Below are positions 6,386 through 51,752 of a DNA stretch of 64,000 nt, piece after piece. The position numbers and the translations under genes were made by a program. Source of the DNA: Marchantia polymorpha subsp. ruderalis (taxonomy: Eukaryota; Streptophyta; Marchantiopsida; Marchantiales; Marchantiaceae); contig AP031351.1 in the NCBI GenBank assembly GCA_037833965.1, forward strand, positions 23,200,501 through 23,264,500, given 5' to 3'. Each line of letters opens with the position of its first letter. Position 1 is the stretch's first letter. The notes beneath the pieces are model-generated. The model saw only the letters and a list, made by a program, of their open reading frames with translations, was not told where the DNA came from and made no database searches.

Positions 6386-6734
6386 TGTGGTAACACACTT
6401 TTTGTTTTTTTTGCAGAATTTAAACAATTTTAGAAAACTAGTACCAAAGCAGTGTTTGTAGCTAGAGAAGGGTACGCTAAATAGAGTGGATTGATGAGAT
6501 CGTCACGAGGACACAAAGAATCACGCAGTCGGATGTACCAATGTCTTCGGCGCCTTCGGCAAAAGCTCCTTTTTGAGGTGTCTCTACTCACGCGCCTCTA
6601 GCGTATAAGGAAGCTACGCTTCCGGCGCAGACACCTCAGGAGGAGGTTTTGCTAAAGACGTCAGGAGAAGGGCCCGGACCTCTAAAGGCATCCGACCATG
6701 AGTGCGCCTTCGGCGAAACGCCGCTAGCGCGGAA

Positions 6735-6876
6735 AGGGAAAACCTTCATAACAATCGGGATACACGGTAGATCCAGTTGGTTGAAGTTGCCTTAGAAAGA
6801 GCGCGGGACGCTCGTTCTAACGAGTCTAAGAGCGTCGGAGATGGATCAGGAATGGAGAAGTTATGAGCGTCGGAAA
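6735..6876 (+). promoter_or_regulatory. Hairpin module shared by U3 of families A, B and C
   Basis: It contains a CTTCATAAC block, a CCAGTTGG block, a two-part stem-loop (TTAGAA 6792-6797 pairing TTCTAA 6815-6820; inner GAGCG 6799-6803 pairing CGCTC 6809-6813) and a tail AGTTATGAGCGTCGG. Related modules occur near 25000 (A) and three times in the C LTR. The role is unknown; a cis-regulatory or RNA-structural element is possible. Confidence 0.5.
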
Positions 6877-7734
6877 ACTCGTAGCCGGACATGCGCCGTA
6901 CGCGCTAGGGTTCACAGCCGGAAAGGATTCCCGTACGCCCTCGGCGATGCGCCTTCGGTGGAATCACGCGCTCATAGGAGGAAACCCACTCAGAGTCGGA
7001 AGCGCCTTTGGCGGCGGTCCATGGAAGGAAAGCGCCGGTCGGATGTACGCCTCCGACGTGGCGCTGACAGCCGGATGCGCTGGCATGGGTTGCGCTGGCG
7101 GATATGCGCCGGCAGCAACGGACGAGGCATAAAGGACAAAATAGGCGGTACGACTGCGCGCCGGCGTAATTCGATCCGACTGGATGTGCGCCTCCAGCAA
7201 GGCGCCGACGGATGATGAACGCACCAGCGGCGACACGCCTCCGGAGAAGGGCGGGTTAGGAAAAGACAACAGGGTCGACGTATACCCTGCAGCGGACTCG
7301 AGTCCGGAAGGTGGCGGCGGCGGGAGAATTCAACGTTCAAGCATGCGAATGCGCGCAATGCGGAGACGTGAATTCGCGCATGCAAAGGGCGAACCGTTAA
7401 GCCGTATAGCCGGCTGCGTACGTTGCAACCAGTAGGAACGTTGGACGTTCTTGAAATCGGAGAAGAAAAGACTGCACTCCAGTCTCATACTCTCATTCTT
7501 GACTTTGCGATTTCCAGTTCCAAGATTACGCGCAAGGGCGGAGCGACCTGCAGTGAGAGTAGAGAGGGCGGAGACGAGTTGCGCAAGGATCTTGGCGGAC
7601 CTTGAAAGAATTGGGAGTAGCGATCTTGAACGAGCGCAGAGAGAGTGAGCAGTCAGTGCTTGAGTGGCCGACGCGCAGTGGCGATTGTGAGAGAGCGAGC
7701 GAAAGGGAGAACGTTTGTGTGTGCAGGCAACGCA

Positions 7735-10290
7735 ATGTCGAAGGTTCCCCAGCTGCGAGTGTCTCCACTCAGGGTGCCGCAGATCGGTCTACGCGCATTT
7801 CAAGATGTGCTGTTGAGGCTGAAGCTCGATTTTCTCCTATGGGGGTGGAATTGGACATGTCCGGAGATGGTGCGCGAGTATCTGCAAGAGAGACACAAGC
7901 CGTCTCGCGGATTTCGCCCACACCCAGAGAGATGGGACATTTGCAATTGGGCGCAGGTGTTGGGCAAGTGTGCCGGCGAGGAAGGGGATCTCCTCTTCGA
8001 GGCCGACAGCGTGAAGGTGTCCCAGGAGGAAGAAGTCTCTTACAATGAGCTCTTCAAGGTGGCTAGACATCCCAAGAACGGTTTCCGGACACGGGATTAC
8101 AAGGATCGATTGCAGAGAAATGTCGCGACGGCATTGCTGCAGATATTGCAGCCGACCAAGACCGCTTACATGCATGGTTGGCAGGTAGAGTTCGTGGAGC
8201 TAGTGCTGTCAGGAGCTCCGGTGCATTGGGCACGGCTCCTGTGGAAGGTGACGCGCCAACATGCGCAAGAAGAGAGGGGAGGAACGCTCAATCATCTATC
8301 GCCTTACTTAATCGTGTTTTACCGGGCGATGGCATGTTTGACGAATGCTGAGAAAACTCGGTTTCCGCAGCTGACCCGGACTTACCCAGGTAGATATTCG
8401 AGGGAGGCCGAAGTAGACATGGATCCGGACGAGGAACCTGCCAGTACGCCTCCGGTTCCGGCTCCAGCAAGAGCAGCAGAAGAACGTCGAAGTGAGCGCA
8501 TTCCGCGAAAGCGGAAGTGGGATGAGAGACCTGAGGACAGGCAGCCGGAAGTGCCAGCTGCGCCGACTCGTGGTCGGCCCACCCCCGAGCCTCACAGTCG
8601 ACCAAAACAGAGGGCACGCAAAATGCCAACTGTTACTAAGGAGACCAGGCGAACTCCGACCCGGCGGAATCTCACACAGGAAGAGATAATCGCTCAGATC
8701 CTAGGCAAGACGGCAGAAACCTCTGCACAGAAGGCACCACGGCCTTCGGGAGGAGATGGACGGACTGACGGCCGGCCGGCTGCGAGTCGGATGACTGAAG
8801 GTCGACAAGCGGAAGGAAGGCCAACTGAACGGCGCGTTGAACCGGACAGCAGGCCGGAAGCAGAAGAGAGTTTGGCTGACGAGCCAACAATCCTCAGAGG
8901 GTCGTCTTCGGCGGAAGGCACTTCTGGAAGAACGCCACCAACAAGCAGGCCAAGTGGAGTCAAGACGCGCAGGGTGTATCCGACTCCCAGTCGGACAACT
9001 GCTGGTCGGCCGACTGCGAGTAGGACAACAGAGAGTCAGTCGGATTCGCCGACTGCGAGACGGATGGGGCCAACGACGAGTGTGCGGACGCCTTCGGCGG
9101 ACGCACCTTCAGCAAGAACACCTTCCGCGCAGATTGCGCCGGAAGGACAGGCAGTAGAAGCGGGCGGATCAAGAGTGACAAAAGTCACTGCGGCGTCGAC
9201 CCCTTCACAAACCGAAGATCAAGCCGGAACAGGGGCTCAAGCAGTGGGATCTCCCACTGCCCTGGATATTTTAGCAGGCAGTGGAGCAGCAGTCGCAGCG
9301 GAAGCTGCTGCGCGCCACAGTTCCAGGGAGTCGCCAAGGGATTCGGTGGCGACTGAAATCCTCGAGACTGAGGATGATACGAGCTCGGAAGAGCAAGAAG
9401 CGGATTCGGTACAGAAAACGCCAACAGGGGTGCTGTGCGAACAGATAGTTCCACTCCTGCGATATCTGGATCGCAAGACATCCAAATACGCGAGTGCCTT
9501 AAAACCGCAGTCTTATGTGGAGACTATCAGGCGAAGGACGAGGAGCAAGGTGGCAAGGTGGGCCTCTAGATGCCAAGTATATGTGGATAGGAACACCGCC
9601 CTCCGACAACACCTGGCGGTCACCCAGAAGCTATACCAAGCCTTGCAGCAGCAGAGGGAGGATGCGGCGACGAAGAGTCAGGCGGAGGCCGAACTAATAC
9701 GGGCAAAGATCGAGTCGGAATTGCAGGAGGAGCGGAGACAGAACAAAGTCCTAGCAGCCGAGCTTGCGCGCCAGACGCGCGCCTTAGAAGAAAGTCAAAG
9801 AGCCCGCAAGGAGGATGAGGAGTTGTTGTGCAACTTGCAATCCGAGTGCTCGGAATTGAGGGCACAACGTGCGGGATTGGAAATGCAGCTGGCAGAGGTG
9901 GAGAGCAGCTGCAGGGCACGAGGAGAGTTGGCGGCACGGGTGACTCGTTGTCTAAAAGGATACACCCATTGGGAGGTGGCAGCTCAAGAGAGGATCACAC
10001 TCAGGGAGTTCGAGCTTCGGGCGGCGGCACTGACGGAAGGTGACAGTCGGAGTCGGCGGCGAGTGGCGAGAAAATTAGAAACCTTCTTGTCGGGTGCGCG
10101 CGACACTATGGCGCACTTGCAGTCGGAAGTCACTGCAGCGCTCCGACGCCTGGGGTTACGCAGCCGGTCGGAAGACTGGCAAGGTAGAGACAGTAAGCGG
10201 AGCAGTCCGGCGCGCAGGAGGCGCAGCACCGGATCTGCTGAATGCAGTAGAGTAGTTTGGTTTCGCGCAGATGCTGCGAGTGGTAGATAG
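7735..10290 (+). CDS. U3-encoded ORF of B1 5' LTR, 851 aa, unknown function
   Basis: The protein is not recognised. I chose the ATG at 7735 because all family B copies share it, while the upstream open frame lacks an ATG and is closed in B2. Residues about 1-228 form a conserved, probably alpha-helical domain with LDFLLWGWNW, NWAQVLGKCAG, RTRDYKDRL and LNHLSPYLIVFYRAM. Residues about 229-565 are disordered and rich in Pro, Ser, Thr and Arg. A conserved block IVPLLRYLDRKTSKY follows at about 570-612, then a long coiled coil (about 620-730), a second block (HWEVAAQERITLREFELRAAAL) and a basic tail RRRRSTGSAEC. There is no signal peptide or membrane segment, so it is not envelope-like. The same architecture occurs in family A, which implies selection. 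A structural or nucleic-acid-binding role is a guess. Confidence 0.8.
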   Translation: MSKVPQLRVSPLRVPQIGLRAFQDVLLRLKLDFLLWGWNWTCPEMVREYLQERHKPSRGFRPHPERWDICNWAQVLGKCAGEEGDLLFEADSVKVSQEEEVSYNELFKVARHPKNGFRTRDYKDRLQRNVATALLQILQPTKTAYMHGWQVEFVELVLSGAPVHWARLLWKVTRQHAQEERGGTLNHLSPYLIVFYRAMACLTNAEKTRFPQLTRTYPGRYSREAEVDMDPDEEPASTPPVPAPARAAEERRSERIPRKRKWDERPEDRQPEVPAAPTRGRPTPEPHSRPKQRARKMPTVTKETRRTPTRRNLTQEEIIAQILGKTAETSAQKAPRPSGGDGRTDGRPAASRMTEGRQAEGRPTERRVEPDSRPEAEESLADEPTILRGSSSAEGTSGRTPPTSRPSGVKTRRVYPTPSRTTAGRPTASRTTESQSDSPTARRMGPTTSVRTPSADAPSARTPSAQIAPEGQAVEAGGSRVTKVTAASTPSQTEDQAGTGAQAVGSPTALDILAGSGAAVAAEAAARHSSRESPRDSVATEILETEDDTSSEEQEADSVQKTPTGVLCEQIVPLLRYLDRKTSKYASALKPQSYVETIRRRTRSKVARWASRCQVYVDRNTALRQHLAVTQKLYQALQQQREDAATKSQAEAELIRAKIESELQEERRQNKVLAAELARQTRALEESQRARKEDEELLCNLQSECSELRAQRAGLEMQLAEVESSCRARGELAARVTRCLKGYTHWEVAAQERITLREFELRAAALTEGDSRSRRRVARKLETFLSGARDTMAHLQSEVTAALRRLGLRSRSEDWQGRDSKRSSPARRRRSTGSAECSRVVWFRADAASGR

Positions 10291-10323
10291 GATAGCGTAG
10301 TGCTAGTTAGGATCTTTTGAGAG

Positions 10324-10352
10324 TATAAAGTAGATCAAGGCGTTTTGCCTTG
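10324..10352 (+). promoter_or_regulatory. B1 5' LTR core promoter (TATA) and start-site hairpin
   Basis: TATAAAG (10324-10330) lies 34 bases after the U3 ORF stop. It is followed by the hairpin CAAGGC-gtttt-GCCTTG (10336-10352), about where transcription should start. Family A has CCAGGC-gtttt-GCCTGG at the same place, a compensated pair change. Confidence 0.65.
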
Positions 10353-11273
10353 GGACTCTTCCAGTTTCGGAAGTGCAGATCAGGAACTCACTTTCTTGGC
10401 GTGTTTGTGCATTTTTGGTCCTGGCACCACGTAGAGAAGCTGCAGCATAGCGAAGTTACCGTATGTTGTAGTTGAAGGCCTTCGGCTGAATGTTCAGAGC
10501 TCGCACCCGGTTAGAGACTTGAGTAGTGCGGATCTGCACCTGCGGGTGATTTCTGATGCTCAGAGCCGGCTGCGAGTTAGATACTTGAACAGTTCCCCCT
10601 TACTCCTTCGAGTGACATATCCTGATTGTACTCCTACGGGAAGTTTCCCCTGAATGCCAATGTGAAGTTTCATTACTTCGTGTAAACCTTGGTTTGTAAT
10701 TCAGGTTGTGTGTGTGTTACTGGATCGTGTTTTCAGTAAGTTCTCAGTCGGGTCTGCACTCCCTGCGTTTTGTGTGATAGTCGAGGGTGACGTCCACGGC
10801 GTACGTAGAGGCTTCGTTCCGAAGTGAGAAGTCCAGTCCGGGTACCCCCGCTAGTTCCTGGCGGAAGGGCAGTAAAAGCCGGAGTGGGAGGCACTTCCTG
10901 CAGAACCTCTGAGTGAACTTGCGAGACACTTTCCTCCTGAAATCCGAAGCGGAGGTCCTGACCGACCTCCGAGTTGTGCTTTTTGCCAGTTTCAGGTGTG
11001 TGTGTGTGTGTGTGTTGAGTGACCAAGCTGTACCGTGCATCCTCCGAGCATCCTCCGAGTTGAGATCCTCCTCCGAGTCGAGCCTCCGAGTCGAGCACTG
11101 CAGTATTTCTGGGAGTGACAGTCGCCTAGAATTCAAACTCTACAAAAGTCTGTTAAACGTGACACTTTTACTCTGTGTGTTGCCTCTGTCCCTGTGGGTT
11201 CGATCTTTTTACCACCATACTGCAAGGTTTAGCCTTTGGTGGGTTATTACATAAGGAGCCGACAACTTCTTTT

Positions 11274-11291
11274 TGGCGCCGCTGCCGGGGA
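11274..11291 (+). other. B1 primer-binding site, tRNA-Asp type
   Basis: TGGCGCCGCTGCCGGGGA, 22 nt after the LTR end. The gag ATG follows 43 nt after the PBS, so the leader is very short. Confidence 0.8.
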
Positions 11292-11334: not shown

Positions 11335-14163
11335 ATGTCGACGAGCGATAGTGTGGGAAACCTGAGTGCGAGAGCCACACGGAAACTCCGTCGAGATTCA
11401 GAAAAAGCCGTGGAAACAAAACGGCGAACTAAAAAGAAGACTCCCGGTGAGGACTCTGCAGAAAGATCGCCATCACCGACTACTGGAAGACAAAGGCGTT
11501 CCAGTTCACCTACTGAGAGCATTGAGCTAACAATTCTGTTGGACATCCCTACGACAGGAACTCTTCCTGAGTTTGGCCAACCTAGGATCAGTCCGTCGAC
11601 AGGATCACCGATGGCAGAACATCAAGCCAATCTCCGCCAGGTGTTTTCCCAACCTACCACCAAACATTCGTATCCAAGATACACGGGAACGGGCGACGAC
11701 GATGATGCAGATTCATACATAAAGCTCTTCGAGTCTGTCTCCATCGCCAATCGTGAGACCAGTGATGAAGACAGACTACGAATCTTTCCTAGCCTACTAC
11801 GCAGACGAGCGCGTAGCTGGTACAACCATGAGAGCACCGACCCCACTGGCATCCGGACCTGGGCTCAGCTCAAGGAAAAGTTTCTGAGGCGGTTCCGCGA
11901 ACTCGGGTATGACAGTCGAGTTCTGACCCGGCTTCGAAATCTTCGACGCGAGCGGAAGGAGAATCTTCGAGACTACACTGAGAGATTCCAAGACCTCCTA
12001 GATCGAATTCCGAAGACAGGCCCGGGAGAACCATACTCGGTACAACAGGCAGTGGATTGGTATGTGACAGGGCTCTCAAGAGAAATGGAGACCTTCTGTA
12101 GGAGAGGCAAGACTGACACAATCCAAGATGTGATAGCTTCCGCGGAGACCTTTGAGACGTCAACCCTTGACACTCGAAGACGCGACCGACGGTCGACGAA
12201 GAAGAAGTCGCAGGGCGGACGTCGGAAGAGAAGGAACTCGCCTTCCTCGACAGAAGAATCAAGCTCCTCCGAATCAAGTTCTTCCTCGGAAGAGGACGAG
12301 GACTCGTCATCTTCAGAAGAAGAAATACGGAAGAAGAAACGCAGTGCGATCAAGAAGAAGGATCGAGGTAAGGGAATCCCAGTGAAGACTCAAGGGGACA
12401 TCGCAGCCAAGGTAGACAACCTGGTGAAGAACTTTGCGGACCTGAAAGTTCATGTAGTGGGAGGCCAAGACCGACGTAAATCACCTGCGAGACAACGAGC
12501 GAATCTCTGGTGTACTACGTGCGGACAGGTGGGACATGCCAACACGGAGTGCATGTCCGCGCGGCCATCTTACCCAGTGAATGCGGTCGAATGGGCACCA
12601 CAGTGGGAGAACCCCATGTATTATGCTGAGCCGCCTATGTATTATGCTGAGCAGGTTGAGGACACCGCCTACTCGGTACAGACAGCTCCAGCTACAACTC
12701 CGAACCCACCGGTGCATATACCGCGCTTTGTTCCGAGGGAAATGGCGGGTACACTCCCACCACGACGCATGGCACCTCCAGGCAATCACAACCGACCTCG
12801 ACCACAATTTGATGGTTGCTATAACTGCGGAGACATGGGGCATTACGCGCCAAGCTGTCCCCACCCGAGGAAGCCAATGGGGTATGCACCGTTGTGCAGC
12901 AATTGCAAGAAGTCCGGACATACAGTAGCCGAATGTGATCAGCCCCAACTCCCTAGGCCAGCCGTGCGTTTCGTATCAACACCTGGCAAGGAAGAAGTGC
13001 AGGTCAACCAGGTAGAACTGAGTCTGGACCCAGATGAAGGAAACGAAGTATGGCCAGAGGAAGAAGTGATGTGCGGTCGGGTAGAAACCCGAAGTTCGAA
13101 GAGGAGGGGAGAAGGTCACGAGGACACTCGCCGCCTCGAGCGTAGAGAAGAGAGAAGAAAGTCTAAAGAAGATAGAGAAGGCCAAAGAAGGAGGCCGGGT
13201 ACACCTCCGGCTATGAGAAACACCCAGCCGGAGCAGAACTCAGAAAAGGCGGACAGGTATTCGGAAGAGTCCCGGACTCGAGATTACCTTCCGGACATCA
13301 AAGATGAGGTGAGTCACCTCATCAAGGAAGCACTAGGCGCCGGAATGACATCCGACGACCGGAAGGCGGTTAGGCCCCCTACACCCCTTCCGACAGCGAG
13401 TACAGGGAAACTTCCGGCTGTGACTTCCAACACTCCCTACGACATAGTGGAGGACATGGGGAGTCAGAGGGCAAATATTTCCTTCCACCAGTTGTTGGAA
13501 GACAATAAGACATACAGAAGGATGCTGATGCTTTCGTTGCGCCGACCACGCAAACCCCGAAAAGAGAAACTTCCGGCTGTGTACAGAGTGGAAGGAGGAG
13601 ACCTGGGACCCCCAGAGATCGAAGTAGAGATCGGAGGCTGCGTCATACAGAAGGTACCTGTGGACTCCGGCTCGGGCGTGAATATCATGACCGAGGAGAC
13701 AGCGAACTCCTTGGGGTTCCAGACCTTCGAGCCTACATCCCGAGTATTGCGACTGGCCGATCAAACACGCAGAATGCCACTAGGAATGTTGAGCAATGTG
13801 AGAACCAACATCGGAGGAGTGGACTTTCAACTGTCCTACATAATACTGCAACCTCTGATGAAGAAAGGTTATGATGTGCTGCTTGGCAGACCATGGCTAT
13901 ACGATGCCAAAGCAAGGTGTGACTGGAGTAGGAAGAGATTACAGTTCCGTAGCCCTGCGGACCCTCCGACTGTCATTACCGTACCATGGACCAAGGTACC
14001 CCATGAGGGCGAAACACCTTCCACCACCTCCGGTTACACAACCGGAGGGGAGACCAGCTCATCATGCACTTCAGAGACCGAAACGTCGGAAGAATTTGTG
14101 GGCTACGTCACTTGCTGCTCTATTGAGGAGGAAGGAGACGAGGTGTATCCGGATGACGAATAG
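11335..14163 (+). CDS. gag: B1 gag-protease polyprotein, 942 aa
   Basis: ATG at 11335. The capsid-type gag domain spans roughly residues 108-275. An acidic Ser/Glu stretch (about 302-331) is followed by Lys-rich runs. CCHC knuckles start near residues 395 (CTTCGQVGHANTEC), 495 (CYNCGDMGHYAPSC) and 521 (CSNCKKSGHTVAEC). The retropepsin Asp lies near residue 777 in PVDSGSGVNIM, with GRPWLYDAK about 75 residues later. It is clearly homologous to A1 gag. A 14-codon upstream ORF (11324-11365) overlaps its start in another frame. The protein should assemble particles, package RNA and mature itself. It ends at a UAG in readthrough context. Confidence 0.93.
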   Translation: MSTSDSVGNLSARATRKLRRDSEKAVETKRRTKKKTPGEDSAERSPSPTTGRQRRSSSPTESIELTILLDIPTTGTLPEFGQPRISPSTGSPMAEHQANLRQVFSQPTTKHSYPRYTGTGDDDDADSYIKLFESVSIANRETSDEDRLRIFPSLLRRRARSWYNHESTDPTGIRTWAQLKEKFLRRFRELGYDSRVLTRLRNLRRERKENLRDYTERFQDLLDRIPKTGPGEPYSVQQAVDWYVTGLSREMETFCRRGKTDTIQDVIASAETFETSTLDTRRRDRRSTKKKSQGGRRKRRNSPSSTEESSSSESSSSSEEDEDSSSSEEEIRKKKRSAIKKKDRGKGIPVKTQGDIAAKVDNLVKNFADLKVHVVGGQDRRKSPARQRANLWCTTCGQVGHANTECMSARPSYPVNAVEWAPQWENPMYYAEPPMYYAEQVEDTAYSVQTAPATTPNPPVHIPRFVPREMAGTLPPRRMAPPGNHNRPRPQFDGCYNCGDMGHYAPSCPHPRKPMGYAPLCSNCKKSGHTVAECDQPQLPRPAVRFVSTPGKEEVQVNQVELSLDPDEGNEVWPEEEVMCGRVETRSSKRRGEGHEDTRRLERREERRKSKEDREGQRRRPGTPPAMRNTQPEQNSEKADRYSEESRTRDYLPDIKDEVSHLIKEALGAGMTSDDRKAVRPPTPLPTASTGKLPAVTSNTPYDIVEDMGSQRANISFHQLLEDNKTYRRMLMLSLRRPRKPRKEKLPAVYRVEGGDLGPPEIEVEIGGCVIQKVPVDSGSGVNIMTEETANSLGFQTFEPTSRVLRLADQTRRMPLGMLSNVRTNIGGVDFQLSYIILQPLMKKGYDVLLGRPWLYDAKARCDWSRKRLQFRSPADPPTVITVPWTKVPHEGETPSTTSGYTTGGETSSSCTSETETSEEFVGYVTCCSIEEEGDEVYPDDE

Positions 14164-14169: not shown

Positions 14170-17004
14170 GCAGCCGGACTGGGCAGAAGCGAGATCAGTC
14201 ACACAGAGGGGATTGTTGACCCGAGTGATTGCTGCGAACTGCAACTCAGTCCAGGTAAAGGCTTGAAGGTGTCAAGCCAGATACAAGGAGAAGAGTTGAA
14301 CAGTGTACAGGCGTTTCTTCGCCAGTATGAGGATGTCTTCGCATGGAAGATTGAAGACATGAAAGGCATACCTGCAAGGTATGGAGAGCACAGGATCGAC
14401 TTGTTGGACGAGGCAGTTCCGGTTCGCCAACGCCAATACAAGCTCAACCCAAAATATTCATTATTGGTGAAGGACGAAATCGATAAGTACCTGAGCGCAG
14501 GAATCATCTACCCGGTACTCAGTAGCGAGTGGGTGTCGCCTATCGTGATCGTGCCCAAGAAACTGACGGGTAAGATCCGGGTGTGTCAGGACTTCAGAAA
14601 GCTGAACGCAGCCACGAGGAAGGACCATCACCCTCTTCCGTTCACGGACTCTATTTTGGACCATGTCGCAGGGCATGAATGCTACAGTTTCCTAGACGGA
14701 TTCTCCGGCTACAACCAGGTGTCCATCAGGGAACAGGACAAGGACAAAACAACCTTCACGACCGACTGGGGAACCTATGCTTATCACAAGATGCCGTTCG
14801 GTCTGTGCAACGCGCCAGCGACGTTCCAGCGGATGATGACAAACATCTTCCAAGAGCACCTGAGGAAGTTCCTAGAAATTTTCATCGACGACTTTTGCGT
14901 CTTCGGCAAGAGGTCGGAGCACCTTGATCATCTTCGGCAAACGTTCGACAGATGTAGGGAGAGCAGCTTGTCCTTACACCCTGAGAAATGTTTTTTCTTC
15001 ATGACCAGCGGAATCCTGCTAGGGCACCGAGTTTCGTCCGATGGCATTGCAGTGGATGTAGAGAAGGTGAAGATTATTCTCGAACTGCAGCCGCCAACGA
15101 ATCTGCGTGAGTTGAGGGCCTTCCTTGGCCATGTAGGTTATTACAGAAGGTTCATAAATATGTACGCCATCTTGGCAGCCGCTCTGACGAAGCTGCTTAA
15201 GAAGGAGGAACCCTATGTGTGGGGCAAAGAGCAACAGCTGGCCTTTGAAACGCTCAAAGCCAAACTGACGACTGCTCCGGTTCTGAGAAGTCCGGATTGG
15301 AACAGACCTTTCCATGTCTATGTAGACACGTCGGCGTTTGCAATCGGGGTGGTTCTCAGTCAGAAGGACGACAACAAGAAAGACTACCCGATTTACTTCG
15401 CGAGTCGTCAGTTGTCAGCAGCAGAGAAGAAGTACACGACAACTGAGAGGGAGGCGTTGGGAATGGTCTACTCCTGTAAGAAGTTCCGACATTATTTGAT
15501 CTGCTATGAGTTCGTGTTTCATGTAGATCATTACGCCTTACAGCACCTGGTAAAGAAGGCGGATCTGTCCGGACGAATTGCCAGGTGGGTACTACTGCTG
15601 CAGGAATTCACCTACACTGTACAGACACGGAAAGGCGTTCACCATGAGAACGCGGACTACCTCTCCCGACTATGGACCGAACCCATAGAGGAGGAAGTAG
15701 TGGATGATTTTCCCGACGAACAACTTTTTCAGTTGTCCGCCAGCCATGAGTCCAGGTACGCGGACTTATACAGGTTCCTGCTCACACTCCAATGTCCGGA
15801 AGGATTGGATGCAGAGCAGCGCACAGTCTTTGTTCATAAAGCGGGACCTTACCAGCTTCAACAAGGGGTCTTGTTCAAGAAAATGGCAGACGAAAGGTTG
15901 TGCAGATGTCTAGAGGAGTCCGAAGTACCGCGAGTTGTCAAAGCCATGCACACAGAAGACGCTGGTGGTCACTACGCCACCAGAAATACAGTGACCAAAA
16001 TTGTGAATGCAGGATACTGGTGGCCGACGATGTTCAAAGATGTACACGACTACGTTCGCAAATGCGACAGCTGCCAGAGGACGGGAAGGCCGACTCCGAC
16101 CACGAGATGGCCTCTTACACCAATCATGCCATTGGCACCATTTGAAAAATGGGGGATCGACTTCGTGGGACCGATACAACCTGTCACTAAAGGCACGCGC
16201 AGGCGCTACATATTGGTAGCAACAGACTATGCGACCAAGATGGTGGAGGCAGAGGCCACAAGGCACGACGACGCAGCCGCAGTAGCACGGTTCCTATTCG
16301 AATCAATCATCACACGCTACGGGTGCCCCCTAGAAATAGTCAGTGACAGAGGGACGCACTTTCTGAATCAGGTGATAGAGAGTTTGACGCGGCACTTCCA
16401 GATTAAGCATCGGAAGACTACTCCTTACAACCCCAAGGCAAATGGTCTGACAGAGAAGTCCAATGGATTACTCTGTAAGATACTCCTCAAGGTGACTGTA
16501 AACCATGCTCATGACTGGGACACCAAGCTACCGGCCGCCTTATGGGCATATAGAACGGCAGAAAAAGTCACCACCAGGCAAACACCTTACTTTCTAGTTT
16601 ACGGGCAGCATCCGATTTTACCCATCGAATTCGAGATACCTACGAAGAGGACCTTAGATCAGAGAAGGCTGGACGCGGAGGAAAGTCAGGCATATCGACT
16701 GCAAGAGGTAATGGCACTGGAGGAAAGACGTCAAGAGGCCGAAGATCGAACAAAGCAATTACAACTCAGGCGGAAGGAGAAGTACGATCGAAGACTCAAA
16801 CCAGTACTGCTGGAGAAGGGCGACTTGGCTCTACTATACGATAGCAGACATGCTAGATTTCCAGGCAAGCTCCACTTAAGGTGGATGGGACCTTACAAGG
16901 TAATAGAAGTTTTTCCAAATGGATCCATCCAACTCGCAGAACTGACGGGAGAATGGTTAGGCACCCGCGTGAACGGATGGCGTCTGAAGAAATACCACGT
17001 GTAA
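14164..17004 (+). CDS. pol: B1 pol: RT-RNase H-integrase by readthrough
   Basis: It is in phase with gag after the leaky UAG and has no ATG at its start (a TTG at 14263 opens the longest conventional frame). Counting from 14263, RT has its IFIDDF box near residues 207-211. RNase H has Asp near 354 and Glu near 392. The integrase zinc finger (HTEDAGGH..CDSC) lies near 560-606 and the catalytic Asp, Asp, Glu near 632, 694 and 730 (D-D-35-E). The end is GPYKVIEVF..VNGWRLKKYH with no chromodomain. One difference from B2 and family A is Ala for Asp in AAxLTKLL between RT and RNase H, outside known catalytic residues. It looks fully functional. Confidence 0.93.
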   Translation, partial: QLAAGLGRSEISHTEGIVDPSDCCELQLSPGKGLKVSSQIQGEELNSVQAFLRQYEDVFAWKIEDMKGIPARYGEHRIDLLDEAVPVRQRQYKLNPKYSLLVKDEIDKYLSAGIIYPVLSSEWVSPIVIVPKKLTGKIRVCQDFRKLNAATRKDHHPLPFTDSILDHVAGHECYSFLDGFSGYNQVSIREQDKDKTTFTTDWGTYAYHKMPFGLCNAPATFQRMMTNIFQEHLRKFLEIFIDDFCVFGKRSEHLDHLRQTFDRCRESSLSLHPEKCFFFMTSGILLGHRVSSDGIAVDVEKVKIILELQPPTNLRELRAFLGHVGYYRRFINMYAILAAALTKLLKKEEPYVWGKEQQLAFETLKAKLTTAPVLRSPDWNRPFHVYVDTSAFAIGVVLSQKDDNKKDYPIYFASRQLSAAEKKYTTTEREALGMVYSCKKFRHYLICYEFVFHVDHYALQHLVKKADLSGRIARWVLLLQEFTYTVQTRKGVHHENADYLSRLWTEPIEEEVVDDFPDEQLFQLSASHESRYADLYRFLLTLQCPEGLDAEQRTVFVHKAGPYQLQQGVLFKKMADERLCRCLEESEVPRVVKAMHTEDAGGHYATRNTVTKIVNAGYWWPTMFKDVHDYVRKCDSCQRTGRPTPTTRWPLTPIMPLAPFEKWGIDFVGPIQPVTKGTRRRYILVATDYATKMVEAEATRHDDAAAVARFLFESIITRYGCPLEIVSDRGTHFLNQVIESLTRHFQIKHRKTTPYNPKANGLTEKSNGLLCKILLKVTVNHAHDWDTKLPAALWAYRTAEKVTTRQTPYFLVYGQHPILPIEFEIPTKRTLDQRRLDAEESQAYRLQEVMALEERRQEAEDRTKQLQLRRKEKYDRRLKPVLLEKGDLALLYDSRHARFPGKLHLRWMGPYKVIEVFPNGSIQLAELTGEWLGTRVNGWRLKKYHV

Positions 17005-17028
17005 ATGTTCGCGTGGGCGCTCACAATT

Positions 17029-17041
17029 GAGGAGGGGGGCA
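17029..17041 (+). other. B1 polypurine tract
   Basis: GAGGAGGGGGGCA lies directly before the 3' LTR terminal TG. It lies between the pol stop and the U3 ORF, and that position places the ORF inside U3. Confidence 0.85.
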
Positions 17042-18390
17042 TGTGGTAACACACTTTTTGTTTTTTTTGCAGAATTTAAACAATTTTAGAAAACTAGTAC
17101 CAAAGCAGTGTTTGTAGCTAGAGAAGGGTACGCTAAATAGAGTGGATTGATGAGATCGTCACGAGGACACAAAGAATCACGCAGTCGGATGTACCAATGT
17201 CTTCGGCGCCTTCGGCAAAAGCTCCTTTTTGAGGTGTCTCTACTCACGCGCCTCTAGCGTATAAGGAAGCTACGCTTCCGGCGCAGACACCTCAGGAGGA
17301 GGTTTTGCTAAAGACGTCAGGAGAAGGGCCCGGACCTCTAAAGGCATCCGACCATGAGTGCGCCTTCGGCGAAACGCCGCTAGCGCGGAAAGGGAAAACC
17401 TTCATAACAATCGGGATACACGGTAGATCCAGTTGGTTGAAGTTGCCTTAGAAAGAGCGCGGGACGCTCGTTCTAACGAGTCTAAGAGCGTCGGAGATGG
17501 ATCAGGAATGGAGAAGTTATGAGCGTCGGAAAACTCGTAGCCGGACATGCGCCGTACGCGCTAGGGTTCACAGCCGGAAAGGATTCCCGTACGCCCTCGG
17601 CGATGCGCCTTCGGTGGAATCACGCGCTCATAGGAGGAAACCCACTCAGAGTCGGAAGCGCCTTTGGCGGCGGTCCATGGAAGGAAAGCGCCGGTCGGAT
17701 GTACGCCTCCGACGTGGCGCTGACAGCCGGATGCGCTGGCATGGGTTGCGCTGGCGGATATGCGCCGGCAGCAACGGACGAGGCATAAAGGACAAAATAG
17801 GCGGTACGACTGCGCGCCGGCGTAATTCGATCCGACTGGATGTGCGCCTCCAGCAAGGCGCCGACGGATGATGAACGCACCAGCGGCGACACGCCTCCGG
17901 AGAAGGGCGGGTTAGGAAAAGACAACAGGGTCGACGTATACCCTGCAGCGGACTCGAGTCCGGAAGGTGGCGGCGGCGGGAGAATTCAACGTTCAAGCAT
18001 GCGAATGCGCGCAATGCGGAGACGTGAATTCGCGCATGCAAAGGGCGAACCGTTAAGCCGTATAGCCGGCTGCGTACGTTGCAACCAGTAGGAACGTTGG
18101 ACGTTCTTGAAATCGGAGAAGAAAAGACTGCACTCCAGTCTCATACTCTCATTCTTGACTTTGCGATTTCCAGTTCCAAGATTACGCGCAAGGGCGGAGC
18201 GACCTGCAGTGAGAGTAGAGAGGGCGGAGACGAGTTGCGCAAGGATCTTGGCGGACCTTGAAAGAATTGGGAGTAGCGATCTTGAACGAGCGCAGAGAGA
18301 GTGAGCAGTCAGTGCTTGAGTGGCCGACGCGCAGTGGCGATTGTGAGAGAGCGAGCGAAAGGGAGAACGTTTGTGTGTGCAGGCAACGCA

Positions 18391-20946
18391 ATGTCGAAGG
18401 TTCCCCAGCTGCGAGTGTCTCCACTCAGGGTGCCGCAGATCGGTCTACGCGCATTTCAAGATGTGCTGTTGAGGCTGAAGCTCGATTTTCTCCTATGGGG
18501 GTGGAATTGGACATGTCCGGAGATGGTGCGCGAGTATCTGCAAGAGAGACACAAGCCGTCTCGCGGATTTCGCCCACACCCAGAGAGATGGGACATTTGC
18601 AATTGGGCGCAGGTGTTGGGCAAGTGTGCCGGCGAGGAAGGGGATCTCCTCTTCGAGGCCGACAGCGTGAAGGTGTCCCAGGAGGAAGAAGTCTCTTACA
18701 ATGAGCTCTTCAAGGTGGCTAGACATCCCAAGAACGGTTTCCGGACACGGGATTACAAGGATCGATTGCAGAGAAATGTCGCGACGGCATTGCTGCAGAT
18801 ATTGCAGCCGACCAAGACCGCTTACATGCATGGTTGGCAGGTAGAGTTCGTGGAGCTAGTGCTGTCAGGAGCTCCGGTGCATTGGGCACGGCTCCTGTGG
18901 AAGGTGACGCGCCAACATGCGCAAGAAGAGAGGGGAGGAACGCTCAATCATCTATCGCCTTACTTAATCGTGTTTTACCGGGCGATGGGATGTTTGACGA
19001 ATGATGAGAAAACTCGGTTTCCGCAGCTGACCCGGACTTACCCAGGTAGATATTCGAGGGAGGCCGAAGTAGACACGGATCCGGACGAGGAACCTGCCAG
19101 TACGCCTCCGGCTCCGGCTCCAGCAAGAGCAGCAGAAGAACGTCGAAGTGAGCGCATTCCGCGAAAGCGGAAGTGGGATGAGAGACCTGAGGACAGGCAG
19201 CCGGAAGTGCTTGCTGCGCCGACTCGTGGTCGGCCCACCCCCGAGCCTCACAGTCGACCAAAACAGAGGGCACGCAAAATGCCAACTGTTACTAAGGAGA
19301 CCAGGCGAACTCCGACCCGGCGGAATCTCACACAGGAAGAGATAATCGCTCAGATCCTAGGCAAGACGGCAGAAACCTCTGCACAGAAGGCACCACGGCC
19401 TTCAGGAGGAGATGGACGGACTGACGGCCGGCCGGCTGCGAGTCGGATGACTGAAGGTCGACAAGCGGAAGGAAGGCCAACTGAACGGCGCGTTGAACCG
19501 GACAGCAGGCCGGAAGCAGAAGAGAGTTTGGCTGACGAGCCAACAATCCTCAGAGGGTCGTCTTCGGCGGAAGGCACTTCTGGAAGAACGCCACCAACAA
19601 GCAGGCCAAGTGGAGTCAAGACGCGCAGGGTGTATCCGACTCCCAGTCGGACAACTGCTGGTCGGCCGACTGCGAGTAGGACAACAGAGAGTCAGTCGGA
19701 TTCGCCGACTGCGAGACGGATGGGGCCAACGACGAGTGTGCGGACGCCTTCGGCGGACGCACCTTCAGCAAGAACACCTTCCGCGCAGATTGCGCCGGAA
19801 GGACAGGCAGTAGAAGCGGGCGGATCAAGAGTGACAAAAGTCACTGCGGCGTCGACCCCTTCACAAACCGAAGATCAAGCCGGAACAGGGGCTCAAGCAG
19901 TGGGATCTCCCACTGCCCTGGATATTTTAGCAGGCAGTGGAGCAGCAGTCGCAGCGGAAGCTGCTGCGCGCCACAGTTCCAGGGAGTCGCCAAGGGATTC
20001 GGTGGCGACTGAAATCCTCGAGACTGAGGATGATACGAGCTCGGAAGAGCAAGAAGCGGATTCGGTACAGAAAACGCCAACAGGGGTGCTGTGCGAACAG
20101 ATAGTTCCACTCCTGCGATATCTGGATCGCAAGACATCCAAATACGCGAGTGCCTTAAAACCGCAGTCTTATGTGGAGACTATCAGGCGAAGGACGAGGA
20201 GCAAGGTGGCAAGGTGGGCCTCTAGATGCCAAGTATATGTGGATAGGAACACCGCCCTCCGACAACACCTGGCGGTCACCCAGAAGCTATACCAAGCCTT
20301 GCAGCAGCAGAGGGAGGATGCGGCGACGAAGAGTCAGGCGGAGGCCGAACTAATACGGGCAAAGATCGAGTCGGAATTGCAGGAGGAGCGGAGACAGAAC
20401 AAAGTCCTAGCAGCCGAGCTTGCGCGCCAGACGCGCGCCTTAGAAGAAAGTCAAAGAGCCCGCAAGGAGGATGAGGAGTTGTTGTGCAACTTGCAATCCG
20501 AGTGCTCGGAATTGAGGGCACAACGTGCGGGATTGGAAATGCAGCTGGCAGAGGTGGAGAGCAGCTGCAGGGCACGAGGAGAGTTGGCGGCACGGGTGAC
20601 TCGTTGTCTAAAAGGATACACCCATTGGGAGGTGGCAGCTCAAGAGAGGATCACACTCAGGGAGTTCGAGCTTCGGGCGGCGGCACTGACGGAAGGTGAC
20701 AGTCGGAGTCGGCGGCGAGTGGCGAGAAAATTAGAAACCTTCTTGTCGGGTGCGCGCGACACTATGGCGCACTTGCAGTCGGAAGTCACTGCAGCGCTCC
20801 GACGCCTGGGGTTACGCAGCCGGTCGGAAGACTGGCAAGGTAGAGACAGTAAGCGGAGCAGTCCGGCGCGCAGGAGGCGCAGCACCGGATCTGCTGAATG
20901 CAGTAGAGTAGTTTGGTTTCGCGCAGATGCTGCGAGTGGTAGATAG
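18391..20946 (+). CDS. U3-encoded ORF of B1 3' LTR, 851 aa
   Basis: Second copy of the U3 ORF. This copy lies downstream of pol on the genomic RNA, so it is the one that can be carried in full-length transcripts. It differs from the 5' copy at about five residues: Gly for Ala and Asp for Ala in the RAMGCLTNDEK segment, Thr for Met before DPDEEP, Ala for Val, and Leu for Pro in EVLAAPT. Most observed LTR differences change a residue, as expected for drift after insertion. Function unknown. Confidence 0.8.
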   Translation: MSKVPQLRVSPLRVPQIGLRAFQDVLLRLKLDFLLWGWNWTCPEMVREYLQERHKPSRGFRPHPERWDICNWAQVLGKCAGEEGDLLFEADSVKVSQEEEVSYNELFKVARHPKNGFRTRDYKDRLQRNVATALLQILQPTKTAYMHGWQVEFVELVLSGAPVHWARLLWKVTRQHAQEERGGTLNHLSPYLIVFYRAMGCLTNDEKTRFPQLTRTYPGRYSREAEVDTDPDEEPASTPPAPAPARAAEERRSERIPRKRKWDERPEDRQPEVLAAPTRGRPTPEPHSRPKQRARKMPTVTKETRRTPTRRNLTQEEIIAQILGKTAETSAQKAPRPSGGDGRTDGRPAASRMTEGRQAEGRPTERRVEPDSRPEAEESLADEPTILRGSSSAEGTSGRTPPTSRPSGVKTRRVYPTPSRTTAGRPTASRTTESQSDSPTARRMGPTTSVRTPSADAPSARTPSAQIAPEGQAVEAGGSRVTKVTAASTPSQTEDQAGTGAQAVGSPTALDILAGSGAAVAAEAAARHSSRESPRDSVATEILETEDDTSSEEQEADSVQKTPTGVLCEQIVPLLRYLDRKTSKYASALKPQSYVETIRRRTRSKVARWASRCQVYVDRNTALRQHLAVTQKLYQALQQQREDAATKSQAEAELIRAKIESELQEERRQNKVLAAELARQTRALEESQRARKEDEELLCNLQSECSELRAQRAGLEMQLAEVESSCRARGELAARVTRCLKGYTHWEVAAQERITLREFELRAAALTEGDSRSRRRVARKLETFLSGARDTMAHLQSEVTAALRRLGLRSRSEDWQGRDSKRSSPARRRRSTGSAECSRVVWFRADAASGR

Positions 20947-20979
20947 GATAGCGTAGTGCTAGTTAGGATCTTTTGAGAG

Positions 20980-21008
20980 TATAAAGTAGATCAAGGCGTT
21001 TTGCCTTG
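20980..21008 (+). promoter_or_regulatory. B1 3' LTR TATA box and hairpin
   Basis: Same TATAAAG and CAAGGC-gtttt-GCCTTG as the 5' LTR. In this copy it would drive transcription into flanking A0 sequence, antisense to the A0 genes. Confidence 0.6.
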
Positions 21009-21907
21009 GGACTCTTCCAGTTTCGGAAGTGCAGATCAGGAACTCACTTTCTTGGCGTGTTTGTGCATTTTTGGTCCTGGCACCACGTAGAGAAGCTGCA
21101 GCATAGCGAAGTTACCGTATGTTGTAGTTGAAGGCCTTCGGCTGAATGTTCAGAGCTCGCACCCGGTTAGAGACTTGAGTAGTGCGGATCTGCACCTGCG
21201 GGTGATTTCTGATGCTCAGAGCCGGCTGCGAGTTAGATACTTGAACAGTTCCCCCTTACTCCTTCGAGTGACATATCCTGATTGTACTCCTACGGGAAGT
21301 TTCCCCTGAATGCCAATGTGAAGTTTCATTACTTCGTGTAAACCTTGGTTTGTAATTCAGGTTGTGTGTGTGTTACTGGATCGTGTTTTCAGTAAGTTCT
21401 CAGTCGGGTCTGCACTCCCTGCGTTTTGTGTGATAGTCGAGGGTGACGTCCACGGCGTACGTAGAGGCTTCGTTCCGAAGTGAGAAGTCCAGTCCGGGTA
21501 CCCCCGCTAGTTCCTGGCGGAAGGGCAGTAAAAGCCGGAGTGGGAGGCACTTCCTGCAGAACCTCTGAGTGAACTTGCGAGACACTTTCCTCCTGAAATC
21601 CGAAGCGGAGGTCCTGACCGACCTCCGAGTTGTGCTTTTTGCCAGTTTCAGGTGTGTGTGTGTGTGTGTGTTGAGTGACCAAGCTGTACCGTGCATCCTC
21701 CGAGCATCCTCCGAGTTGAGATCCTCCTCCGAGTCGAGCCTCCGAGTCGAGCACTGCAGTATTTCTGGGAGTGACAGTCGCCTAGAATTCAAACTCTACA
21801 AAAGTCTGTTAAACGTGACACTTTTACTCTGTGTGTTGCCTCTGTCCCTGTGGGTTCGATCTTTTTACCACCATACTGCAAGTTTTAGCCTTTGGTGGGT
21901 TATTACT

Positions 21908-23880: not shown

Positions 23881-23909
23881 CCAGGCAAAACGCCTGGAAC
23901 TATTTTATA
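23881..23909 (-). promoter_or_regulatory. A2 3' LTR TATA box and hairpin
   Basis: On the minus strand TATAAAATA (23901-23909) is followed by CCAGGC-gtttt-GCCTGG (23881-23897). Same layout as in A3 and in family B. Confidence 0.6.
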
Positions 23910-23945
23910 CCTTCTAAGTCCTAACTAGCACTACACTGCACTACG

Positions 23946-25951: not shown

Positions 25952-28900
25952 ATGACCTTCGACCGGGCGGCGGAGAACGTCCCATTCTTGAATTCGCGAT
26001 TCCAATCTCTTGTGCGCGCTGCGCGCATCCATCTGCTGGCTGCTAAACATTCTCGACGTCGCCGCACAGGAGATTTCTTGTTGATTGAGGGAGAAGTGAA
26101 TGCGCGTGATTTGGAATTGAGGGCGATTAGAGTTTGCCGAGAGAGAGAGAAGCTCGGGCGGTGCGGAAGTAGAATGAGCGGGCGAGCGAACCCCAGGAAC
26201 GCAATGACGAGACCGAGCAGATTGCGGATGGTGCCACTTCGCCTACCACAGAACGGGCTGCGCGCTTTCGAGGAGCGCTTAATAGCAAGAAAGCTCGATT
26301 TCTTGCTATGGGGATGGAACTACATCTGTGCGAATATGGTGCGCGAGTGGCTAGAGCCACAGGGACCACCCTCGCGCGGATTGCGTCCGCATGTTGATCG
26401 GTGGACAGTCCAAGATTGGGCGCAGGCGTTGGGAAGATGTGCTGGCATGCCAGGGCATCTCCTTTTCGACAGTGAGAGCATCAAGGTGACCAAGCAGGAA
26501 GAGGCGCAATTTGTGGAGCTGTTCAAGACCGGGAGGTCTACCAAGAATGGGTACAGGACCCGTGATTACAAGGATCGATTTCGCCGGACTTTGTCCGCGG
26601 CGCTGATGCAATTGCTGCAGCCACACCGCGCCTGCTACATCACATTGTGGCAGGTCTCTTTTGTGGAGTGCGTCATCGAGGGAACTCCAATTCACTGGGC
26701 GAGCATCCTGCACAGGGTGATGCGACAGCACGCTTTTGAGGAGAAGGGGGGAACTCTAAACCATCTTTCTCCTTTCCTCATCAATTTTTATCGACAGCGG
26801 AATTGTTTGACAGCGGCGGAGCTTGAGCATTTTCCGCCATTGTCCGTCGACCATCCCGGGAAGTATGTGCGGGAGAATGAGGTCGACACTGATGCAGAGG
26901 AGTCACCGACTTCTACCCCATCAAGGCGGAGGGACGAAGGGAGAAACACTCCTGCAGCACGAGTGCCGCGGAAGCGGCGATGGAGAGAAGAGTCCGAAGA
27001 GGAGCAGCATCAAGAACCCTCTGCTCCCATTCGACCGCGGCCGCTGTACGAGTCATACAGCCGGCCGAAGCAGAAGGCACGCAGACTGGTGTTACCAGCC
27101 GACAGTGCGGACACGGCGACGATTGCGACGGAGAAAGGAAGTGCGTCGCCAGAGAAGCATGAGGAAGCGCGGACGACCGCAGGAGCAACGGGCCACGCTG
27201 CAACCTCGACGGGAGAGAGGCCGCCTACGGGCCAAGGGCCTCCGGAGTTACCACGTGCGTCGCGGACAGATGTTTCGTTTGCGCACAGACGAGACTCCGC
27301 GGACGGACGAGCCTCCGCGGACAGGCGATCACAAGTGGACGTGGATCTACGCTTACGCGTGGGAAGGAGTAGTCCGCCTGTGCACAGGACACCTCCACAC
27401 GTGCCGCCTGTGCACAGGCAAGAATCACCCCCGTTCCAACGTAGGAAGGGGAAAGAGCCGGCGGAAGAACCGCCTACGAGACACCGGCCCTCGGGGCCAG
27501 ACCCTCCGGCGCACCACGCGCCGCAATTTGCGCCTTCGGCGCCAGGGCCTTCGAGCCGAGGAGATACGAGCAGGGAGCGTGCGGAGGCCGCACCATCGGC
27601 GGGTAGTCCGCCGATAGATGCGCCTTCGGCGGTAGGACCTATAGGCCAAGGGACATCGGGCGAGCGACCCCCGGCCATGTCGCCTTTGGCGATGGATGTC
27701 CGCGGCGCTACGCCTGCGGCGGACAAGGCGCCGGCATTTGCGCCTGCGCACAGGCCGAGCACAGCCCCCACGGACCGATCAAGGGAGCAGCAACAGACGC
27801 AGGAGCGGAGTGACTGTCCGCGGGATGAAATTTCGATGCGCGATGCGCAATCAAACCCCGCGCAGCCACCCTCCGCTCGATCGCCTTCGGCGGCGGGCGT
27901 CGGCGGCAGAGAGGACACGGTAGACGACCAACAAGCGAGCGGCGGGGATGCCGCACGGGCACATTCGCCTACCGCCTTAGACATTTTGGCGAAGAGCAGC
28001 GAGGCTGCAGCCGTGCCTTCGCAGGCAGCACACGTCGACGACGTGCAGCCCCACTCGGGGCAGTCGCCGACGCAATCAATGGCGACCGAAATTCTCCACT
28101 CGGATGATGACGACGGAGGCTCCACGGAAGAAATGTCAGGAGCAGAAGACACCGAGGAGGAGGAGGAGGAAATTGTTGGAGCGCCGGCGGCGGCGCTCTC
28201 TGAGCTGGTGATTCCGTTGCTGAGGTACTTGGATCGTAAGGTCGATAAATACGCCGACCCACTTCAGCCGGGATCTTACATCGAGTTAGTGCGCAGGCGG
28301 ACTCGCACTAAAGTCCACACCAGCAAGCTGTTAGCTAGAGTGGACCAGGAGTTGAGGGAATTGAAGGAGAAGCATGCATGCTTGTGGGGTCAGTATAAAC
28401 TTAATCAGAAATTCTACAAGCACTCCGAGAAGGTGAAGGATGAGAAACTGGACGAGCTCACCAAGGAGCAGGTGAAGGTCAAGGAAGCACTCATTTCTGA
28501 GCAGGCCCAGAATCGGATTTTGTCAGAGGAGCTCGTGCGACAGACGCGGTTGTTGGAACAATGTCAGCTCGCACGGCAGGCGGATGAGGAGTTAATCCGC
28601 AGGTTACAGTCAGAGTGTGGCGAATTGAGAGCGCAACGTGCTGAGGCCGAATCGCAATTAGTGATAATTGAAGAGGATCGCAGGAAGGAGGCGGATCGCA
28701 CGAAGGTGGAGACGGCGAGGCGTGTCGCCCACTGTCTCAAGGGCTACGCCCACTGGGAAGTGAAGGCGCAGGAGAAACTCACACTGCGTGAGTTTGAATT
28801 GCGCGCAGCCGGGTTGTTGTCAGGCGACAGTAGGAGTCGGCGGAAGGTAGCAAAGAAGCTCGATGCTTTTCTGTCGAAGGCACAGGATACCATGTCCGCC

Positions 28901-29095: not shown

Positions 29096-29124
29096 TATAA
29101 AATAGTTCCAGGCGTTTTGCCTGG
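29096..29124 (+). promoter_or_regulatory. A3 LTR TATA box and hairpin
   Basis: TATAAAATA (29096-29104) and CCAGGC-gtttt-GCCTGG (29108-29124), 37 bases after the U3 ORF stop. Transcripts from here would run directly into the inverted A2 LTR. Confidence 0.65.
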
Positions 29125-41033: not shown

Positions 41034-41066
41034 GATAGCGTAGTGCTAGTTAGGATCTTTTAAGAG

Positions 41067-41095
41067 TATAAAGTAGATCAAGGCGTTTTGCCTTG
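41067..41095 (+). promoter_or_regulatory. B2 5' LTR TATA box and hairpin
   Basis: TATAAAG at 41067-41073 and hairpin CAAGGC-gtttt-GCCTTG at 41079-41095. Confidence 0.65.
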
Positions 41096-51690: not shown

Positions 51691-51723
51691 GATAGCGTAG
51701 TGCTAGTTAGGATCTTTTAAGAG

Positions 51724-51752
51724 TATAAAGTAGATCAAGGCGTTTTGCCTTG
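51724..51752 (+). promoter_or_regulatory. B2 3' LTR TATA box and hairpin
   Basis: TATAAAG at 51724-51730 and hairpin at 51736-51752. It would drive transcription antisense to the A0 gag remnant. Confidence 0.6.

What the first reader, a model, noticed from the sequence alone, without database searches (positions are those of the whole stretch)
7735..10290. A large conserved gene lives inside the LTR (U3) of two gypsy families
Seen: an 851-codon ORF lies wholly within each 4.87 kb LTR of B1 and B2. LTR ends are fixed by the perfect target duplication of B2. The ORF is upstream of the LTR TATA box, so it is in U3, after the polypurine tract on genomic RNA. Family A LTRs hold a diverged homologue (25952-29059) with the same N-terminal domain, coiled coil and basic tail, while the middle has drifted, a pattern expected under selection. 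Known: MMTV sag is a U3 gene and foamy virus accessory genes reach into U3; plant Tat/Ogre elements have extra ORFs, but as far as I recall outside the LTR. Inference: a 3'-terminal accessory gene of this lineage that each integration duplicates.
Basis: partly seen in the sequence, partly recalled or inferred. Interest (0 to 1): 0.88.

Follow-up and report, generated by a model that had tools for sequence, protein, structure and literature searches.

The report
Gene inside liverwort retrotransposon terminal repeats
In the liverwort Marchantia, a group of jumping genes carries a large, selectively conserved extra gene inside the repeats at both of their ends, so even lone end-repeats left behind in the genome can keep an intact copy of that gene.

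Summary
The window is Marchantia polymorpha. B1 and B2 are Ty3/gypsy elements with 4.87-kb LTRs; an 851-codon sense ORF lies wholly inside each LTR. The polypurine tract closely follows the pol stop. The LTR's only TATAWA box lies 33 nt past the ORF stop and is conserved in family A, so the ORF is probably in U3. The arrangement recurs in family A and in a third family, C51. The ORF is under purifying selection between lineages (N-domain dN/dS 0.08-0.36) but not detectably between LTRs of one insertion (2 S: 10 N: 1 stop). Of 50 LTR loci examined, 25 are solo LTRs, 23 with perfect 5-bp target duplications; 17 of those 23 keep the ORF open. Protein searches found relatives only in Marchantia or unnamed assemblies; profiles of known plant accessory ORFs did not match. 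An NLS-like motif is conserved. New here: a palindrome and a pyrimidine block 121-128 nt apart, conserved upstream of the ORF in three families, suggest a U3 promoter for the gene, as with MMTV sag. Transcription and function are untested.

The parts
6386..11251 (+). B1 5' LTR (TG...CA, 4866 bp)
   Evidence: self-BLAST; ends read; same ends in solo LTRs with exact target duplications
7366..7379 (+). conserved palindrome-like motif upstream of the ORF (ACGTGAATTCGCGC)
   Evidence: shared by B, A and three C copies
7477..7506 (+). pyrimidine-rich block; CATTCTTGA at 7494 is 128 nt after the palindrome start (initiator-like by inference)
7725..7726 (+). possible splice-acceptor AG (TTTGTGTGTGCAG) 8 nt before the ATG; inferred only
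   Evidence: CAG also before the A start, in a weaker context
7735..10290 (+). accessory ORF inside the LTR (probably U3), 851 codons
8503..8520 (+). PRKRKW, NLS-like motif of the ORF product
   Evidence: K[RH][KR] in 34 of 40 members spanning the site
10324..10329 (+). TATA box (GTATAAAGTAG), the only TATAWA in the LTR + strand
10330..11251 (+). conserved noncoding R/U5 stretch (R and U5 limits inferred)
   Evidence: 76-84% identity between A, B and C51 downstream of the ORF; alignment
10736..10741 (+). possible splice donor GTAAGT in the leader (GTGAGT in A); inferred only
   Evidence: not kept in C51
11274..11291 (+). putative primer-binding site TGGCGCCGCTGCCGGGGA, 22 nt past the LTR
   Evidence: sequence; tRNA identity recalled, not shown
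11335..14163 (+). B1 gag-protease ORF
   Evidence: Pfam, (protease match just under its cut-off)
14263..17004 (+). B1 RT-RNaseH-integrase ORF
   Evidence: Pfam
17028..17041 (+). polypurine tract TGAGGAGGGGGGCA next to the 3' LTR
   Evidence: homologous tract in A
17042..21907 (+). B1 3' LTR
18391..20946 (+). ORF copy in B1 3' LTR
37123..41989 (+). B2 5' LTR; target duplication TGCAC at 37118-37122 and 52647-52651
38478..41033 (+). ORF copy in B2 5' LTR
47780..52646 (+). B2 3' LTR
49135..51690 (+). ORF copy in B2 3' LTR
56636..57796 (+). first half of a fifth ORF copy, split by a nested element
62533..63929 (+). second half of the fifth ORF copy
25952..29059 (+). family A homologue in an LTR starting at 24709; start equivalent to B is the Met at 26204; TATA at 29096

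Best explanation
The ORF is a genuine third gene (after gag and pol) of a Marchantia Ty3/gypsy lineage. It sits in the LTR, so reverse transcription copies it into both LTRs at every integration. Shown: position inside the LTR, sense orientation, purifying selection in the transmitted lineage, no detectable constraint between LTRs of one insertion, the same layout in three diverged families, and intact copies in many solo LTRs. Inferred: genomic RNA starts at the TATA box just after the ORF, which puts the ORF in U3; the gene is expressed from its own U3 promoter (palindrome plus pyrimidine block, 369 and 241 nt upstream in B, 137-478 nt over all families), as MMTV sag is from P2, with the RNA ending in R of the same LTR. 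Also inferred: the protein is nuclear (conserved PRKRKW), has a globular N-terminal domain, a disordered linker, a helical C-terminal region that may be a coiled coil and a basic tail, and acts in trans as a nuclear factor of the element (LTR transcription or anti-silencing, or nuclear entry and integration).
For: LTR ends, target duplications, polypurine tract and putative PBS. Selection: B1 versus the fifth copy, N-domain 32 S/158 sites and 10 N/532 sites (dN/dS 0.081); B1-B2 whole ORF 0.345; A-B N-domain 0.138 with near-saturated dS; 7 within-element LTR pairs 2 S, 10 N, 1 stop, differing from the N-domain ratio at p = 1.4e-4. Variants shared among 43 copies: normalised N/S 0.19-0.21. Layout in A and C51. 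TATA unique in the B LTR and conserved in A and in one C copy. Noncoding DNA downstream of the ORF 76-84% identical between families, upstream 46-50%, Markov controls 40.5-46%. Palindrome-to-block spacing 128 nt in B and three C copies, 121 in A. NLS-like motif 34 of 40. Analogues: MMTV Sag from U3 promoter P2 (PMC9412291, passages); Grande gene23, nuclear protein with its own promoter (PMC7264820, two of three parts of the text).
Against: No transcript or protein evidence. Two public gene models (P0011, P0133) join parts of this ORF to gag; if real, transcription would start upstream of the ORF and 'U3' would be wrong. B1-B2 N-domain dN/dS is 0.357, and residues 231-387 of the fifth copy versus B1 give 0.837. 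The ORF is far less constrained than gag (0.083) or pol (0.048) between B1 and B2. The upstream motifs were found by looking at many local matches, and the three C copies are close kin, so they stand for three families at most. C51 has lost the TATA region and its ORF is decayed. Both structure predictions failed (mean pLDDT 38.5 and 40.6).
Confidence: 0.55

Rival explanations
1. The ORF is in U3 but is expressed env-style: the full-length RNA starts after the TATA box and a donor in the leader (10736) is spliced to an acceptor just before the ORF ATG (7725-7726, in the 3' LTR copy), so only full-length elements make the protein.
For: TTTGTGTGTGCAG lies 8 nt before the ATG in B and a CAG at the same place in A; GTAAGT (B) and GTGAGT (A) align in the leader.
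Against: The donor is not kept in C51. The acceptor context in A is poor, and GCAG is common in that region. It does not explain the conserved palindrome and pyrimidine block upstream.
Confidence: 0.2
2. Transcription of the element starts upstream of the ORF, so the ORF is in the 5' leader (not U3) and may be spliced or fused to gag, as a 5' accessory ORF or gag extension.
For: Gene models P0011 and P0133 join ORF pieces to gag; conserved motifs lie upstream of the ORF.
Against: The ORF ends in a stop codon 1,044 nt before the gag ATG; the single TATA and the strongly conserved leader begin after the ORF. The two models join at different points, and residues 141-286 of P0011 have no match in the window at E 1e-5.
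Confidence: 0.15
3. The ORF is a former env-position (pol-to-LTR) accessory ORF of the Tat/Athila type that became part of U3 when the LTR edge moved to a polypurine tract beside pol; it works as such ORFs do, and its LTR position has no functional meaning.
For: Only 37 nt separate the pol stop from the LTR. A sense 3' ORF with an NLS is reported in a sunflower Athila element (PMC11728184, passages). This is compatible with the main explanation as its origin.
Against: No match to PF20167, PF03078 or PF04195 in the members scanned or in the genome; the genome searches rang in no control genome, so they are weak.
Confidence: 0.3
4. The open frame is a by-product of youth: recently inserted copies have not yet decayed and the ORF has no function.
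For: LTR pairs are 99.8% identical and the genome hits were ranked by protein score.
Against: Between-lineage dN/dS of 0.08-0.5 in most segments of window copies not chosen by score (one segment 0.84), and homologous ORFs about 46-60% identical in other Marchantia sequences.
Confidence: 0.03

Closest known systems
MMTV sag (U3 gene of a betaretrovirus)
   Same: Sense ORF inside U3, therefore in both LTRs; Sag is expressed from a second U3 promoter, P2 (PMC9412291, passages).
   Different: No direct sequence comparison was made; the PDB sequence search found nothing. The element here is a plant Ty3/gypsy element with only 37 nt between pol and LTR, so no room for env; the ORF is 851 codons, and its U3 promoter is only inferred.
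Sense 3' accessory ORFs of Athila elements (PF03078, PF20167 Transposase_32)
   Same: Sense, downstream of pol; the sunflower example has an NLS (PMC11728184, passages).
   Different: Described between pol and the 3' LTR; no match to either profile here.
Antisense accessory genes of Grande (gene23) and Retand (TRP28, PF04195)
   Same: Accessory gene downstream of pol; nuclear product and own promoter in Grande (PMC7264820); SMC-like segments in some Retand ORFs (PMC11963269, passages).
   Different: Antisense and internal there; sense and inside the LTR here; no PF04195 match.
[not shown]
   Same: Marchantia host, no second RNase H found in pol.

Membership tests
Ty3/gypsy LTR retrotransposon | gag, protease, RT, RNase H, integrase in that order; LTRs TG...CA; 5-bp target duplication; PBS and PPT | tested here: met
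   (protease match just under its Pfam cut-off; primer tRNA not identified)
Tat/Athila (OTA) clade | RT phylogeny within OTA | not tested
   no reference RT set in hand; PBS type recalled only
[not shown]
   one search lists RT_RNaseH and RT_RNaseH_2 over one overlapping stretch and no other RNase H model
Athila ORF1 / Transposase_32 | match to PF03078 or PF20167 | tested here: not met
   (50 members of alignment A3); the genome searches rang in no control
[quoted passage not shown]
   sense and inside the LTR
U3-encoded gene (as MMTV sag) | ORF wholly between the LTR 5' end and the transcription start | tested here: inconclusive
   inside the LTR and upstream of the only TATAWA; start site not mapped
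U3-encoded gene (as MMTV sag) | own promoter in U3 | not testable with these tools
   conserved palindrome and pyrimidine block only
env-like gene | signal peptide and transmembrane segment | not tested
   no predictor was run
Gag duplicate | profile similarity of the N-domain to gag | tested here: not met
   hhalign probability 0.2%, shallow profiles

The most novel reading that the evidence does not exclude
Each LTR is a complete, self-contained gene: its own upstream promoter, an 851-codon nuclear regulator, and an RNA end in R. Solo-LTR formation, normally the death of an element, would then leave a dispersed set of stand-alone genes that can supply the regulator in trans, so LTR-LTR recombination would not remove the family's trans-acting function.
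Probability: 0.25. Interest if true: 0.85.

Novelty: new variant of a known kind. Interest (0 to 1): 0.72.

Why it matters
Accessory ORFs of plant LTR retrotransposons are described as lying in the internal region (PMC7264820). A large selected gene wholly inside the LTR of a plant element would be an independent case of the MMTV-sag layout. It would help explain why these LTRs are so long (4.87 kb in B, 4.5 kb in C51), and it would turn solo LTRs from relics into possible genes. Seven paper searches showed no such plant case in the titles and abstracts listed (one search listed 20 of 30 papers, 15 of 75). The two papers were checked by passage and concern other things. Most subscription journals are not in that library, so this is weak evidence of novelty.

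Tried and rejected
Structure: two AlphaFold2 jobs on the N-terminal domain gave mean pLDDT 38.5 and 40.6, so no fold search was run. PDB sequence search: none at E up to 1. Viral contigs: 65 pattern matches, no relative. Rfam on the leader: nothing at E up to 1. Gag origin of the N-domain: no support. A primer-tRNA check failed: the one locus fetched of 34 matches to the PBS complement held no tRNA. Heptad test: the best 42-residue windows in B1 and A were reached by 27 and 36 of 5000 shuffles, without correction for choosing the best window; the coiled coil stays an inference. Papers naming Mp_8g15400 or MARPO_0006s0274: none. An earlier count said 40 of 53 copies without stop; the recount is 41. 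In one search the shared-variant profile along the LTR includes truncated copies, so its high values at the 5' end are not used.

Full report
Where it is. The window is Marchantia polymorpha: the best protein hit is Mp_8g15400, and the window maps to G000:C2:23200501-23264500 of a 241-Mb assembly. It is a nest of Ty3/gypsy elements.

Anatomy. B1 has LTRs at 6386-11251 and 17042-21907; B2 has LTRs at 37123-41989 and 47780-52646, with a perfect TGCAC duplication. gag-protease and RT-RNaseH-integrase ORFs lie between them (the protease match is just under its cut-off). A PBS-like sequence starts 22 nt after the LTR. A polypurine tract begins 23 nt after the pol stop and abuts the 3' LTR. Each LTR holds an 851-codon sense ORF. 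The longest stop-free run is 886 codons, against a maximum of 290 in 500 Markov sequences.

Is it in U3? The B LTR has one TATAWA, at 10324, 33 nt after the ORF stop. The same box stands just after the ORF in family A and in one C copy. Downstream of the ORF the noncoding DNA is 76-84% identical between families A, B and C51; upstream of the ORF it is 46-50%, with Markov controls at 40.5-46%. This fits a transcription start just after the ORF and a constrained leader. It is not a mapped start site.

Selection. B1 versus B2: dN/dS 0.345 for the ORF, 0.083 for gag, 0.048 for pol. B1 versus the fifth window copy: 0.081 for residues 1-230, 0.837 for 231-387, 0.426 for 387-560, 0.393 for 561-851; versus B2 the same pieces give 0.102, 0.472, 0.493, 0.400. 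In the B1 comparison dS in the N-domain is two to four times that of the other pieces, so this copy may be a recombinant. B1 versus B2 by region: 0.357, 0.404, 0.280. A versus B: 0.138 for residues 1-230 with dS near saturation; elsewhere dS is saturated. As a control, LTR pairs of the same insertion or tandem (7 pairs, three of them without any change in the ORF) differ by 2 synonymous, 10 nonsynonymous and 1 stop change. This fits neutrality (p = 0.75) and differs from B1 versus the fifth copy, N-domain (p = 1.4e-4) and whole ORF (p = 0.018), and from B1 versus B2 (p = 0.034). So the gene is kept by selection in the transmitting lineage and shows no constraint after insertion, though 13 changes are few. 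That is how a transposon gene behaves, not a host gene.

Genome copies. The protein search scored 53 of 13,386 first-look candidates; the 53 are full length and 41 have no stop. For A, 44 of 13,055 candidates were scored and 30 have no stop. Both lists are ranked by protein score and so favour intact copies. Of the 53 B hits I examined 50. Twenty-three are solo LTRs with identical 5-bp duplications, 2 solo without, 10 are 5' LTRs, 5 are 3' LTRs, 3 are shared LTRs of tandems and 7 are truncated or unclear. The ORF is open in 17 of 23 duplicated solos, 1 of 2 others, 10 of 10 5' LTRs, 4 of 5 3' LTRs, 2 of 3 shared and 4 of 6 truncated; L018 was left out of this count because of an indel. Among 43 copies (L018 and 6 same-element copies dropped), variants shared by two or more copies have normalised N/S of 0.19-0.21, singletons 0.37; both are biased downwards by the ranking.

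A third family. Searching with P0003 scored 82 of 10,214 candidates (120 matches), most of them with stops. Locus C51 (L051 with L054) is a 4.5-kb solo LTR with duplication TCTTT, the same LTR 5' end, a decayed homologue of the ORF (48% identical to B over residues 1-473) and the conserved leader. So the layout predates the split of A, B and C.

Protein. Two profile searches gave 84 hits (N-terminal, E up to 10) and 118 hits (C-terminal, E up to 0.01; only 7,994 candidates scored); every source name shown is Marchantia polymorpha, the rest are unnamed. In the Pfam scans no accessory-ORF family of plant elements matched; the best chance-level match was 0.0013 in one of 50 members. Genome searches for PF20167, PF03078 and PF04195 found nothing, but they also rang in no control genome. 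A K[RH][KR] motif, mostly PRKRKW, follows the N-domain in 34 of 40 members that span it. The middle is rich in P, S, T and G, and the tail is basic. No confident model was obtained.

Expression. In B, A and three C copies a palindrome-like motif (B ACGTGAATTCGCGC; C51 GCGTGAATTCACGC) stands 265-478 nt upstream of the start, followed after 128 nt (B, C51, C52, C53) or 121 nt (A) by a pyrimidine-rich block. The three C copies are close kin and count as one family. One form of the motif occurs 34 times in the genome; comparing the printed positions by eye, 11 of the 34 lie 158-1,126 nt upstream of a listed ORF match, on the same strand. These are copies of one repeat family, so this shows retention of the motif, not independent gain. 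I read it as a U3 promoter for the gene, like P2 of MMTV, which drives Sag (PMC9412291, passages). A spliced message is the main rival. Gene models P0011 and P0133 join ORF parts to gag at different points; without RNA they cannot be weighed.

Origin. The polypurine tract sits next to pol, so a shift of the LTR edge to that tract would have turned a pol-to-LTR accessory ORF into a U3 gene in one replication cycle. This is inference.

Verdict. Expression and function remain untested.

Noticed in passing
window 11251-11291: The PBS-like sequence starts 22 nt inside the LTR end in both A and B; target duplications of solo LTRs fix the LTR end, so the right end of the cDNA may need unusual trimming.
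   Followed up: partly
window 10330-11251: About 900 nt of noncoding leader is 76-84% identical between families whose synonymous sites are near or at saturation; cause unknown (no Rfam match at E up to 1).
   Followed up: partly
B, A and C51 LTRs (U3 and the ORF middle): CGCCTTCGG occurs 4, 6 and 8 times on the + strand and never on the - strand (Markov mean about 0.02), both in noncoding U3 and in the ORF middle.
   Followed up: partly
LTRs of A (22934-23930, minus) and C51: A second copy of a U5 segment (TAGTATTTCTGGGAATGA...) lies inside the LTR of A and C51 but not B.
   Followed up: no
G000 C7:486795-510661 and C5:20408080-20431964: Tandem arrays of three LTRs spaced about 10.66 kb.
   Followed up: no
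window 56348-60412: A nested gypsy element splits the fifth ORF copy, and one 1354-codon frame runs from this ORF copy into the nested element's pol.
   Followed up: no
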